Positions 49,604-52,821 of a stretch of DNA of 64,000 nt are shown here, piece after piece. The notes under the pieces are model-generated. The model saw nothing but the letters and a program-made list of their open reading frames with translations, was not told the origin of the DNA and searched no databases. The stretch comes from Roseibium algicola (GTDB lineage Bacteria; Pseudomonadota; Alphaproteobacteria; Rhizobiales; Stappiaceae). Where the stretch lies: assembly GCF_001999245.1 (NCBI RefSeq), contig NZ_CP019630.1, forward strand, positions 4,307,001 through 4,371,000, in the 5' to 3' direction. Numbering within the stretch: position 1 is the stretch's first letter; every line of letters begins with the position of its first letter. A program made the position numbers and the translations under genes.

Positions 49604-50155
49604 TTATGGATGGGTTTCTGTCAGTACCAGGAAATGTGCGGGAACGGCATCCGTCAGCCAGACGCCGTTCTCCGTCCTGTAAAACGTGTGCCCCACGGCC
49701 TGCATTGCGCTGGCCGCGACCTGAAGAATTGCAGGTTTGCCGTGACGGCTTCCGACCTTGTGCGCGGTGTCGCGATCCAGTGACAGATGCACATGGTGCC
49801 GGGCCATAGGTTTCAGGCCTTCGGCCAGAATGGGCGGCAGAAAGCGTGTTGCCGTTCCGTGGAACAGGATCTCCGGAGGCTGTAAAGCTGTGAGGCCTAG
49901 TTCAATGTCAATCGAATGACCCTGACGTGCGCGAATGTGTTTGCCGTCTTCGGAGAACTCGAAGCGTTTCTTGTCGTTGGTCGCGACTATTCTTTCCAGC
50001 TGATCCCTTTTGCAATCAAGGCCGAGGGCTCTTAAGGCACCAAGGACATCAGCTACGTCAGCCCAACCGCTGTCTGACAGCATCAAACCGGCGTCTTCCG
50101 GTTTGTGTCTTAGCCAGAAAGACAGGCGTTTCGAGATCTTTGTGTCTGTTTTCAT
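49604..50155 (-). CDS. kptA: RNA 2'-phosphotransferase (Tpt1/KptA)
   Basis: A 183-residue enzyme of the Tpt1/KptA family, which moves a 2'-phosphate from RNA splice junctions or 2'-phosphorylated RNA ends to NAD+. The N-terminal winged domain begins ISKRLSFWLRHKPEDAGL with the invariant Arg16 and His17; the C-terminal NAD domain contains the signature HGTATRFLPPILAEGLKPMA, RHHVHLSLDRDTAHKVG. It is complete. The ATG at 50155 follows AAAGAAAAAGA, a weak site; a TATACT -10 lies about 20 bp upstream. It is downstream of a slipin gene on the same strand. In bacteria it has no splicing role, so it may serve RNA repair. Confidence 0.92.
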   Translation of the reverse strand: MKTDTKISKRLSFWLRHKPEDAGLMLSDSGWADVADVLGALRALGLDCKRDQLERIVATNDKKRFEFSEDGKHIRARQGHSIDIELGLTALQPPEILFHGTATRFLPPILAEGLKPMARHHVHLSLDRDTAHKVGSRHGKPAILQVAASAMQAVGHTFYRTENGVWLTDAVPAHFLVLTETHP

Positions 50156-50282
50156 TGTCTTTTTCTTTAAAAGTATACTGTTTTCAAATTCTGCGACCCC
50201 AGGGAAAGCGGGCGAGCGCACCCTCAATCGAGGTGGCCAGGTGACAGGACCTGGACAGCCATGGCCTGCAATGGCCGTGCTG

Positions 50283-50320: not shown

Positions 50321-51475
50321 TCATGCCGCGTTGTCGTCCCGAAGCCGGACGAGGTCGTTCATGAGGCCTCCGGTTCCGTTGTGGACCGTGAGCCGGTCGA
50401 CCTTGCCGGCGATGGCTTCAAGCGCTTCGAGCTCCTTGAGCCGAAGCATGACCGGGTTTTCGGCCATGACCTTGGCTGTGTTGAGAAGCGAACGGGTTGC
50501 GTTCGTTTCTTCACGGCGCCGGATCACATTGGCTTCGGCTTCCTTTTCGGCTGCCACCACCTTGTCGAGGATCTCGCGCATTTCGCCCGGAAGGATCACG
50601 TCCTTGAGGACGATGTCGGAGACCTCGACACCGATTTCAGCCATGTCGGCCTTGATCTTTCCGGCAGCTTCCGCGTTGACCTCCCCCTTCTTTTCAAGGA
50701 TCTGGTCGAGCTTGAGCGCGCCGAGCTGCTTGCGGAACACAAGCTGCAAGGCCCGGTAGAGCGTGTCGGTGAAGTCCTTCACCTCGGTTGCGGCCTTCAC
50801 CGGGTCAACCACACGGTAATCCACGGAGAGGTTGATCCGGATGGTAACGCGGTCGAGGGTCAGGACTTCCTGACCGGTGACGTCGAGAGCCTGACGCTTG
50901 AGGTCGATGACCTTCTGCGTCACGGTTCGGCCAGCCTTCCAGAAGGCATGCACCCCGGCTTCAAGCACCTTGGTGAGCACGCCATCCATGAAGAGGAGGG
51001 CGATGCTACCGTCGGTCACCGGCACGATCACGAACTGCTGCGTCTGACGGGCATCCCCGAGCCGGCGCATGAGCTTCTGCGTGAGGGCCGGGTCGGCAGC
51101 CGTGTCGATGACCTCGAAGGTCCACGGGCCGGCATCCGTCCACAGGACAAGCCGCTCGTCCGGGCCAAGCACGGTGTGGATACGGTTGTCCCGTTCCACA
51201 ATCGCCACTTCACCCGGTCCGGTCCGGATAACGGTCAAGTGCTCTTCGGCAACTTGGGGAAGCTTATCGAAGAGCGCCTTCTCGTAGGCCGACCGGAACT
51301 GGGGCATTGCCATCGACTGGCGCTCGATCACCAGGGTGCCACGGCCATTTTCGAGGCTGTGTTCACCGGGGCCGAGAATACCCTGGAGCTCTCCCTTGCA
51401 GATGTGGAGGGCCCGTTCCGTTTCAGAAATCACTACGCGGGTTCGCCCGCGGATCTTGTCGAGAAAAGTCGTCAT
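50321..51475 (-). CDS. Slipin/stomatin-like SPFH (band 7) protein
   Basis: A 384-residue SPFH-domain protein with no signal peptide. The N-terminal basic region and RVVISETERALHICKGELQG precede an SPFH domain (about residues 95-300) containing ERDNRIHTVLGPDERLVLWT, RVTIRINLSVDYRVVDPVKA and DFTDTLYRALQLVFRKQLGAL. The C-terminal coiled coil is VVAAEKEAEANVIRRREETNA. Slipins are known to recur in RNA-repair neighbourhoods with RtcB, RtcA or Tpt1 (from memory), and kptA follows here. The ATG at 51475 comes seven bases after AAGGA. The upstream sequence holds two tRNA-like elements on the same strand. Confidence 0.86.
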   Translation of the reverse strand: MTTFLDKIRGRTRVVISETERALHICKGELQGILGPGEHSLENGRGTLVIERQSMAMPQFRSAYEKALFDKLPQVAEEHLTVIRTGPGEVAIVERDNRIHTVLGPDERLVLWTDAGPWTFEVIDTAADPALTQKLMRRLGDARQTQQFVIVPVTDGSIALLFMDGVLTKVLEAGVHAFWKAGRTVTQKVIDLKRQALDVTGQEVLTLDRVTIRINLSVDYRVVDPVKAATEVKDFTDTLYRALQLVFRKQLGALKLDQILEKKGEVNAEAAGKIKADMAEIGVEVSDIVLKDVILPGEMREILDKVVAAEKEAEANVIRRREETNATRSLLNTAKVMAENPVMLRLKELEALEAIAGKVDRLTVHNGTGGLMNDLVRLRDDNAA

Positions 51476-51866
51476 TTCGATAATCCTTCCAATGCGCTAA
51501 GGCACGTGGTTGTCCTTTCCGGTGTTGAAGATGGTTGGAGGTTGAGGAAACCGGTCGCTCGTCATGAGGCGTCCGGGGTGAAACGATGAGACCCGAAGAG
51601 AGCACGAGGTCTCCCGGCGGGCCCTTGGCCAGAGGGCGTAGCAGCGGCAATGCGGGTTCCAACCCGTTCGAAAACAGGCGGTTTCGGCAAAGCGGCGGCA
51701 GAGCCTTTGCCAAAGGCCGGGCGAAGCGACCTGGCGTCGGCGGTCAGGGCACTTTCACCCGAAGGCAAAAGGGCCAGTCCGCGTTCGCAAGACCTCTCCG
51801 GGTCCCCAATGGAACAGCTTGCATAGCTGCTGGCGTGACAGGCCAGTTCGGCGTTGGAGGCCGTGT

Positions 51867-51937
51867 TTTTGGAGCGAGAGTTGAACTCGCGACAGTCGGA
51901 TTAAAGGTCCGATGCTCTACCACTGAGCTATCCATGG
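51867..51937 (-). tRNA. tRNA-like element B, tRNA-Lys(UUU)-derived, C at position 33
   Basis: On the minus strand the D arm is GCTCAGTGGTAGAGC, the anticodon stem TCGGA/TCCGA with loop CCTTTAA, and the T arm GCGAG-TTCAACT-CTCGC. This is nearly the anticodon arm of tRNA-Lys(UUU) except that the universal U33 is C. The acceptor stem pairs only four bases (TGGA with TCCA); its outer three positions mismatch (CCA against AAA) and no CCA tail is encoded. It begins inside the end of element A. It looks like a degenerate or repurposed tRNA. Confidence 0.6.
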
Positions 51938-52009
51938 AGCACATCACAGGAGTCGAACCTGTTGCTTCCGGGGTACACTCCCGGCGTTCAACCGTTAAAC
52001 TTCATGCGC
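51935..52009 (-). tRNA. tRNA-like element A with encoded CCA, G at position 33
   Basis: On the minus strand the acceptor GCGCATG pairs with GATGTGC at six of seven positions (one G-U) and is followed by T-CCA. The D arm is GTTT-AACGGTT-GAAC, the anticodon stem CCGGG/CCCGG with loop AGTGTAC, the variable loop AAGCA and the T arm ACAGG-TTCGACT-CCTGT. The anticodon by position would be UGU, but position 33 is G, not U, which normal tRNAs do not tolerate well. The CCA overlaps the first three bases of element B. This looks like a translation-defective or specialised tRNA. Confidence 0.6.
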
Positions 52010-52191
52010 GATTGTCCGATCCACCAGAACAGCATCCGTACATGAGTGGGCAGGGCCTGATCATGCGGGTGGCGAAAAATGGCCGAGCCGTTGATGTCTG
52101 TGCCAGTATGGTGACCGGTGACGAGTTGATACTTCGAGAGCGGGTGCCAATGCAACCGGCAATTTCAAGAGAAGCGATGTTTGTTGCTAAT

Positions 52192-52219
52192 GTGATACAG
52201 TATGTTGTATTTTTATCAC
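52192..52219. promoter_or_regulatory. AT-rich dyad between the tRNA-like elements and the SnoaL gene
   Basis: GTGATA (52192-52197) and TATCAC (52214-52219) form inverted arms, with an inner ATACA...TGTAT pair. It lies between divergent units and is AT-rich against GC-rich surroundings, so an operator or promoter is plausible. No protein is assigned. Confidence 0.45.
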
Positions 52220-52380
52220 TTTTGCCCAGAGTGCCGGCTGTCGCCCTGGGCGGGGACTTTGGTTGGTTTGAAGCGGTTTCGGTGAAGAACCGTAAACCGC
52301 AATCTCCTCGACCTCTTGCGCCGGGAAGACGGCGAAGGCAAACTCCCGGCCAGATTGTGTTTCCGCCCCTGCGAGGACCT

Positions 52381-52821
52381 ATGGCCAACAAACAGTCCCG
52401 GTTTCTGATCGACACCTATTTTGCCGCCTTCAATGCAGGCGATACCAAGAAAATGGAAAGCCTGGTTGCCGACGACCTGATCCATGACGTCAACCAGGGC
52501 GAACGCCGTGTCGGCAAGGACAAGTTCTGGTCCTTCAACGTTCACATGACGCGCTGCTACAAGGAACGCCTCAGCGACATCGTGCTGTTCGTCAGTGAAG
52601 ACGGGACACGGGCTGCTGCCGAGTTCATCGTCCATGGCAGCTATATCGGCACCGACAGCGGATTGCCGCCCGCGAACGGCCAGACCTACAAGCTGCCGGC
52701 GGGCAGCTTTTTCGAGATCCGCGATGGTCAAATCGCCCGCATCACCACCTATTACAACCTTCAGGACTGGATCGACCAGGTGACGGAAGGTGCGGGTGAA
52801 AAAGTGCCGGAAGAGGCCTGA
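52381..52821 (+). CDS. SnoaL/NTF2-like ketosteroid-isomerase-type protein
   Basis: A 146-residue protein of the NTF2-like fold. The N-terminus reads SRFLIDTYFAAFNAGDTKKM with a following ESLVADDLIHDVNQGERRVG, and the barrel strands RAAAEFIVHGSYIG and GSFFEIRDGQIARITTYYNL match SnoaL-like polyketide cyclase or isomerase relatives. The ATG at 52381 follows GAGGACC. The frame is open upstream for another 265 codons, but that stretch runs through the tRNA-like sequences and is not counted. Function not assignable. A terminator follows. Confidence 0.8.
   Translation: MANKQSRFLIDTYFAAFNAGDTKKMESLVADDLIHDVNQGERRVGKDKFWSFNVHMTRCYKERLSDIVLFVSEDGTRAAAEFIVHGSYIGTDSGLPPANGQTYKLPAGSFFEIRDGQIARITTYYNLQDWIDQVTEGAGEKVPEEA

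What the first reader, a model, noticed from the sequence alone, without database searches (positions are those of the whole stretch)
51867..52009. Two overlapping tRNA-like elements, both lacking U33, next to slipin and kptA
Both elements fold with D, anticodon and T arms and canonical T loops (TTCGACT, TTCAACT), but position 33 is G in one and C in the other. U33 is almost universal in translating tRNAs. Element B otherwise matches a tRNA-Lys(UUU) anticodon arm with U33 changed to C, and its acceptor stem is half broken; element A has an encoded CCA that overlaps the first bases of B. They lie on the same strand and upstream of a slipin gene and kptA (RNA 2'-phosphotransferase). This looks like a set of decoy, sensor or Y-RNA-like tRNAs in an RNA-repair locus. 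The function is inference; the structures are read from sequence.
Basis: partly seen in the sequence, partly recalled or inferred. Interest (0 to 1): 0.85.

Follow-up and report, generated by a model that had tools for sequence, protein, structure and literature searches.

The report
Paired tRNA mimics leading slipin gene
Two joined RNA elements that look like transfer RNAs, but are built in a way that does not suit protein synthesis, form a conserved leader in front of an RNA-repair-linked slipin gene in scattered proteobacteria, and their anticodon loops keep changing, as if they were bait or stand-ins for damaged tRNAs.

Summary
In detail: two abutting tRNA-like elements (A 52009-51938, B 51937-51865, minus strand), both without U33. 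They are not decayed tRNA genes. The tandem precedes slipin (SPFH/Band-7) on the same strand in 17 of 17 own/relative loci and 75 of 80 named loci; every helix shows compensatory changes. Of 37 Roseibium genomes, the same 16 hold slipin and tandem and 21 hold neither. In 13 of 13 fetched loci from other classes, rtcB lies within the stretch, rtcR in 7. B's short acceptor is a family trait; its anticodon changed at least 17 times on a Mesorhizobium tree while its anticodon stem stayed fixed. Best reading: a tRNA-mimic RNA working with a slipin scaffold in RNA repair, as nuclease bait or substrate-like cofactor; a cis-acting leader remains possible. I recall that the class was announced in 2016 (Burroughs and Aravind, 'a novel tRNA-like molecule'); that paper could not be read here. 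Possibly new: shared-CCA tandem, leader domain, kptA-linked form, loop turnover. Mechanism is inferred, not shown.

The parts
52126..52155 (-). sigma-70-like promoter (TTGCAT, 18 nt, TATCAA), read by eye
   Evidence: similar boxes in most Roseibium rows of the alignment; the consensus scanner did not report it
52024..52106 (-). structured 5' domain between promoter and element A
   Evidence: RNAalifold on 22 sequences: 24 pairs, 19 with changes on both sides; 0 of 500 shuffles as high
51938..52009 (-). tRNA-like element A; anticodon loop AGTGTAC (G33), 7-bp acceptor with one mismatch, followed by CCA
   Evidence: Rfam tRNA 38.7 bits; tandem model 135.6 bits; covariation
51865..51937 (-). tRNA-like element B; anticodon loop CCTTTAA (C33), 4-bp acceptor; its first three bases are A's CCA
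   Evidence: Rfam tRNA 54.9 bits; tandem model 135.6 bits; covariation
51815..51863 (-). three small hairpins after B (51849-51863, 51830-51846, 51815-51829)
   Evidence: read by eye, with similar shapes in Roseibium and Mesorhizobium alignments; not tested for covariation
50321..51475 (-). slipin (SPFH/Band-7) protein, 384 aa
   Evidence: Pfam Band_7 E 5.6e-29; downstream of the tandem in relatives
49604..50158 (-). kptA, RNA 2'-phosphotransferase
   Evidence: Pfam PTS_2-RNA E 1.8e-49; at the locus in 12 of 17 own/relative loci

Best explanation
The pair is one conserved non-coding RNA module, a tandem tRNA mimic, lying at the head of the slipin gene. Shown: it is a structurally constrained RNA element tied to slipin, and in relatives from other classes the same kind of module stands by slipin in rtcB-bearing loci, often next to rtcR, the gene of a sensor of damaged tRNA. 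Inferred: it is co-transcribed with slipin, is bound or used by the slipin scaffold, and acts as a tRNA look-alike in RNA repair. The most likely specific role is that the elements display anticodon loops that tRNA-cutting nucleases attack, so that they soak up or report the damage and hand cut ends to ligase or end-processing enzymes (RtcB encoded elsewhere in 15 of 18 slipin-bearing Roseibium genomes; KptA at this locus). They are unlikely to be translating tRNAs.
For: Tandem at 100 bits or more upstream of slipin in 92 of 97 sources (17 of 17 own/relative; 75 of 80 named; 20 of the sequences built the model and the two sets share genomes). Same 16 of 37 Roseibium genomes hold slipin and tandem, 21 neither. 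Covariation: 28 of 39 pairs on 20 rows; 35 of 39 on 87 rows fitted to the model. In the class sample slipin is in 5 of 289 genomes; the four others score 121, 115, 88 and 57 bits upstream. In the phylum sample 23 of 398: tandem 85 bits or more in 17 of 23 loci (own included), 30-63 in 5, none in 1 cut by a contig end. RtcB within the fetched stretch in 13 of 13 loci from other classes, RtcR 7, RtcA 6, RlaP 5 (Pfam for part of them). Sigma54-type -24/-12 sites before the tandem in 6 of the 7 rtcR loci (L251, L259-L263), by eye except L259. RtcB elsewhere in the genome in 15 of 18 slipin-bearing Roseibium genomes versus 3 of 23 without; Fisher p 7.5e-6, not corrected for kinship. B anticodon: at least 17 changes on a tree of 40 Mesorhizobium-group slipins (39 scored); B anticodon stem 0.00 bits entropy, loop 0.90. 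14 of 47 group-wise unique B loops equal a host tRNA loop, shuffles 0.36. The genome has ordinary tRNA-Lys(UUU) and tRNA-Thr(UGU) elsewhere. [quoted passage not shown]
Against: No expression or binding data. The RtcB search found none in this genome, and the locus has no rtcR. In rtcR locus L264 the sigma54-type site lies after the tandem, just before slipin, so co-transcription is not supported there. B loops that merely keep the general YU-NNN-R grammar would match host loops fairly often without specific mimicry. Variable columns are not confined to the anticodon loops: A's D loop and T stem reach 1.7-1.9 bits in the Mesorhizobium group. Over 15 hand-picked sister pairs B's loop changes 1.7 times as fast as the rest of the tandem (0.152 against 0.090 per site), A's loop 4 times. 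An ordinary tRNA pair in a genome without this slipin scored 126 bits with the same model (G122), so score alone does not identify the family. The unit is single, weak or eroded in L150-L153 and L157 and in L232, L235, L241, L243, L246 (30-63 bits), and no tandem is found in two enterobacterial slipin leaders.
Confidence: 0.6

Rival explanations
1. Cis-acting leader: the tandem is a processing or control element of the slipin message (RNase P or Z cutting at the tRNA-like folds, or a switch that senses the state of tRNA-processing enzymes), with no role as a separate RNA.
For: Same strand, with A starting 342-674 nt before slipin in the 16 tandem loci measured and 534 in the window, inside a longer conserved structured leader; no terminator-like site found in 51400-52400 (the shuffles averaged 1.6).
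Against: Neutral processing signals would not obviously need two elements with patterned, changing anticodon loops; outside Roseibium B's loop mostly still looks like a tRNA anticodon loop.
Confidence: 0.25
2. Ordinary or decaying tRNA genes that happen to lie here.
For: ARAGORN calls B, and Rfam both, tRNA; in the Mesorhizobium group B has a seven-base loop with U33 in 36 of 40.
Against: Compensatory changes in every helix, fixed tandem geometry, linkage with slipin, B acceptor of 3-4 pairs, A loops of 5-6 bases in all 41 Mesorhizobium-group rows.
Confidence: 0.03
3. A synthetase-binding or T-box-like operator that controls slipin by tRNA charging.
For: Leader position and anticodon-like loops.
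Against: The downstream gene is no synthetase or amino-acid gene; B anticodons switch among many amino acids between related species; no leader segment was seen to change along with the loop in the ten Mesorhizobium-group rows looked at by eye.
Confidence: 0.03

Closest known systems
Band-7/SPFH module with 'a novel tRNA-like molecule' in RNA-repair systems (Burroughs and Aravind 2016, NAR 44:8525; abstract recalled, paper not held)
   Same: tRNA-like RNA next to a Band-7 gene in RNA-repair gene neighbourhoods
   Different: anatomy cannot be compared; here a tandem with shared CCA, changing loops and, in this genome, kptA without linked ligase
YrlA/YrlB Y RNAs with Rsr in rsr-yrlBA-rtcBA operons (PMC7790460, passages)
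   Same: tRNA-like RNA plus a scaffold-type protein in rtcR-linked RNA-repair loci
   Different: YrlA model 28-38 bits, cut-off 69; two tRNA-like units instead of one tRNA-like domain; slipin instead of Rsr
Anabaena TrcR regulon: trn tRNA array, rtcB, slipin alr0740 (PMC10272220, passages)
   Same: slipin, rtcB and extra tRNA genes under one translational-stress control
   Different: there the tRNA array is a separate operon; no tandem leader is described in the passages seen
Eukaryotic vault particle (MVP plus small RNA; RNA part recalled)

Membership tests
Translating tRNA | U33 in the anticodon loop | tested here: not met
   G33 in A, C33 in B
Translating tRNA | seven-pair acceptor stem of its own | tested here: not met
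   B 4 of 7; A 6 of 7
Translating tRNA | stable anticodon identity between close species | tested here: not met
   tested in relatives: B anticodon at least 17 changes on 40 Mesorhizobium-group rows
Translating tRNA | aminoacylation and use on ribosomes | not testable with these tools
   needs experiment
YrlA Y RNA (Rfam RF02553) | score over the family cut-off | tested here: not met
   28.4 bits against 69 in the window; at most 37.7 in 16 loci scanned
YrlA Y RNA (Rfam RF02553) | encoded beside rsr | not tested
   no rsr query was run; the scaffold-type gene seen here is slipin
Band-7-linked tRNA-like RNA of RNA-repair systems (2016, recalled) | tRNA-like RNA beside a Band-7 gene | tested here: met
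Band-7-linked tRNA-like RNA of RNA-repair systems (2016, recalled) | RNA-repair genes linked | tested here: met
   kptA in the window; rtcB in the fetched stretch of 13 of 13 relatives from other classes; no rtcB linked in the window
Band-7-linked tRNA-like RNA of RNA-repair systems (2016, recalled) | same RNA as described in that paper | not testable with these tools
   paper not held
RtcR/sigma54-controlled RNA-repair operon | rtcR and rtcB at the locus | tested here: not met
   none in the window or in L061-L076; met in 7 (rtcR) and 13 (rtcB) of 13 loci from other classes
Vault-like particle | MVP-like fold over the whole protein | tested here: inconclusive

The most novel reading that the evidence does not exclude
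The tandem is a sacrificial, rapidly diversifying anticodon bait carried by a slipin scaffold: the loops follow whichever tRNAs current nucleases cut, cleavage of the bait makes the cyclic-phosphate ends that trigger or feed RNA repair, and the ligase resets it. This would be an RNA-level arms race visible in anticodon loops, possibly inside a vault-like bacterial ribonucleoprotein.
Probability: 0.25. Interest if true: 0.88.

Novelty: new variant of a known kind. Interest (0 to 1): 0.66.

Why it matters
What the tRNA-like and Y RNAs of bacterial RNA-repair operons do is an open question. This family is patchy but wide (slipin in 23 of 398 sampled genomes of the phylum). At the tandem Rfam gave only the general tRNA family over its cut-off or, below cut-off, chance-level relatives. 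B's anticodon loop differs between close species while its own stem does not vary. That gives a direct test: swap loops and challenge with defined tRNA nucleases. It also shows that the module persists where no rtcR or linked rtcB is found.

Tried and rejected
Y RNA membership: rejected on score. Pseudogene reading: rejected on covariation and linkage. Score-only identification with the tandem model: rejected, since all 289 genomes of the class-wide search gave some match at the chosen threshold and an ordinary tRNA pair reached 126 bits; I relied on position before slipin instead. In E. coli L247 and Citrobacter L248 slipin leaders the model finds no tandem; a T-arm-like hairpin behind a sigma54-like site was seen by eye, and Rfam has no tRNA-like match there. 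Pairing of B's loop with another leader segment: none seen by eye. Vault-like N-terminal part: no convincing match when modelled alone. PADLOC: no match for slipin or KptA. Other neighbours scanned (HNH, DUF480, signal peptidase, aldolase, aminotransferase) led nowhere. ORF clustering around the 80 loci was cluttered by antisense frames; downstream fatty-acid-synthesis-like and other genes looked lineage-specific by eye and were not scanned. kptA is at 7 of 80 named loci, all titled Roseibium, Labrenzia or Stappia or uncultured Roseibium.

Literature: 10 searches. 'slipin' with 'tRNA-like' and 'SPFH' with 'tRNA-like' returned 0 papers. This covers open-licence papers only; the 2016 paper that I recall as describing the class is not held. 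Seen as passages: PMC10272220, PMC7790460, PMC11237479, PMC7159879, PMC9879122; all others as search listings.

Row choices: the Mesorhizobium group is L087-L119, L122, L123, L125, L127, L134, L143, L155, L156 (41 rows, L087 titled only 'Bacterium'); the tree left out L125 (partial slipin); L124 has no upstream sequence. Loop counts used the first match of each source in alignment A3 and left out repeat rows of the same genomes; L153's row looks misaligned but was counted; L150 and L151 count for B only. The 15 sister pairs were picked by hand and overlap. The host loop list lacks tRNA-Ile and tRNA-Ala(UGC). Alignment A4 contains ordinary tRNA pairs; its counts are not used. Alignment A3 is fitted to the model, so its pair counts lean towards it.

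Full report
Check of the finding. Two tRNA-like elements lie head to tail on the minus strand at 52009-51938 (A) and 51937-51865 (B). The Rfam tRNA model accepts both, B at 54.9 and A at 38.7 bits; ARAGORN reports only B, as tRNA-Lys(ttt). Position 33 is G in A and C in B. A has 6 of 7 acceptor pairs, B has UGGA/UCCA, and the CCA after A's discriminator is also B's first three bases. Energy folding alone does not make the case (z -1.3, A drawn differently).

Conservation. A DNA search of 61 genomes (own included) found strong matches in 16 of 37 Roseibium genomes and one in another family; weaker matches elsewhere are short stretches shared with ordinary tRNAs. Slipin follows on the same strand in 16 of 16 fetched relatives' loci. 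A profile search found slipin in 18 of 41 genus members; within the 37 genomes shared by both searches it is in exactly the 16 with the tandem and in none of the 21 without. In an even sample of the class slipin is rare, 5 of 289 genomes; the four besides our own have 121, 115, 88 and 57 bits of tandem upstream.

Structure. A covariance model of the tandem from 20 sequences finds it at 100 bits or more in 92 of 97 sources: the window, 16 of 16 relatives and 75 of 80 named loci. Exceptions are L124 (upstream sequence missing) and L150-L153. On the 20 rows 96.9% of cells pair and 28 of 39 pairs have changes on both sides, with 0 of 500 shuffles as high on any of five measures; on 87 distinct rows, fitted to the model, 35 of 39. 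A's seven-pair acceptor covaries. B's acceptor is three firm pairs and a fourth in 39 of 85 rows, so the 'broken' acceptor is a family trait. A CCA stands near the A-B junction in 67 of 84 rows. Upstream of A a further domain folds with 19 of 24 pairs changed on both sides.

Anticodon loops. In 41 Mesorhizobium-group rows A's loop has 5 or 6 bases. B's seven-base loop has U33 in 36 of 40 there, 7 of 15 in Roseibium and 23 of 27 elsewhere; A's seven-base loops have U33 in 0 of 10 in Roseibium and 6 of 16 elsewhere. B's anticodon stem has zero entropy in the Mesorhizobium group while the loop has 0.90 bits per site; A's D loop and T stem also hold variable columns, up to 1.9 bits. On a tree of 40 slipin genes (12 of 37 inner branches unresolved) the B anticodon changed at least 17 times and the A loop at least 21. 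Of 47 group-wise unique B loops 14 equal a real tRNA loop of two host genomes, against 0.36 for shuffled loops; part of this may reflect only the general grammar of anticodon loops. In 15 hand-picked sister pairs the changes per site were slipin 0.039, leader 0.059, tandem outside loops 0.090, B loop 0.152, A loop 0.37.

RNA-repair context. Across the phylum 23 of 398 genomes hold a slipin at E <= 1e-50; the tandem is present at 85 bits or more in 17 of those 23 loci, at 30-63 bits in 5, and not found in one cut by a contig end. Stretches of about 10 kb were fetched for 18 of these. In all 13 from other classes of the phylum rtcB lies in the stretch; 7 have rtcR, 6 rtcA, 5 rlaP (Pfam for part of them). 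One of the 13, L254, is weaker: a 27%-identical rtcB-like gene about 2 kb beyond slipin and a Pfam-confirmed rtcB about 4 kb on the other side. Before the tandem of the rtcR loci L251 and L259-L263 stands a sigma54-type site (by eye except L259); in L264 it stands after the tandem. None of 106 other loci in that script (17 own/relative, 80 named, L157-L160, and 5 alphaproteobacterial ones) had rtcB within the few kilobases held, nor had the two enterobacterial loci, which have rlaP. In Roseibium, however, rtcB elsewhere in the genome goes with slipin: 15 of 18 with, 3 of 23 without (Fisher 7.5e-6, no correction for kinship). No rtcB was found in the window's own genome, which has kptA beside slipin.

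Interpretation. The tandem is a conserved tRNA-mimic RNA of slipin-centred RNA repair. [quoted passage not shown] The same idea fits here, and the loop turnover makes it testable. A cis-acting leader role cannot be excluded.

Known or new. I recall from the abstract of Burroughs and Aravind 2016 that Band-7 modules in RNA-repair systems come with 'a novel tRNA-like molecule'. I could not read that paper. I therefore call this a new variant of a known kind; the tandem anatomy, leader domain, kptA-linked form and loop turnover may or may not be in that paper.

Noticed in passing
L249:6373-8541 and L254:6551-6833: Arrays of 7 and 3 further tRNA genes on the same strand, about 0.7-2.9 kb upstream of the slipin tandem in two loci with rtcB, recalling the Anabaena trn array.
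   Followed up: partly
about 190-210 nt before A in alphaproteobacterial loci: A palindrome of the type GTTGC-N6-GCAAC (GTGGC-N6-GCCAC in some); a perfect one in 23 of 87 distinct upstream stretches, not in the window itself. A possible operator.
   Followed up: partly
window 51476-51520 (-): Just before the slipin start most Roseibium loci keep GTG CCT TAG (or CCC) after a ribosome-binding-like AAAGGA, a minimal reading frame that could also pair with the slipin ribosome-binding site (by eye).
   Followed up: no
L068, L069, L070, L073, L075, L076 after element B: A third tRNA-like fragment (variable arm plus T arm) follows B where other loci have a short hairpin (by eye).
   Followed up: no
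L263:4169-4239: A third tRNA-like unit immediately before the tandem.
   Followed up: no
L247:5680-5860 and L248:4680-4860: Enterobacterial slipin leaders with a sigma54-like site and a T-arm-like hairpin; rtcR beside it in Citrobacter but not found at the E. coli locus; rlaP follows in both.
   Followed up: partly
L251:4256-4810: A 184-aa protein without a Pfam match between slipin and rtcB.
   Followed up: no
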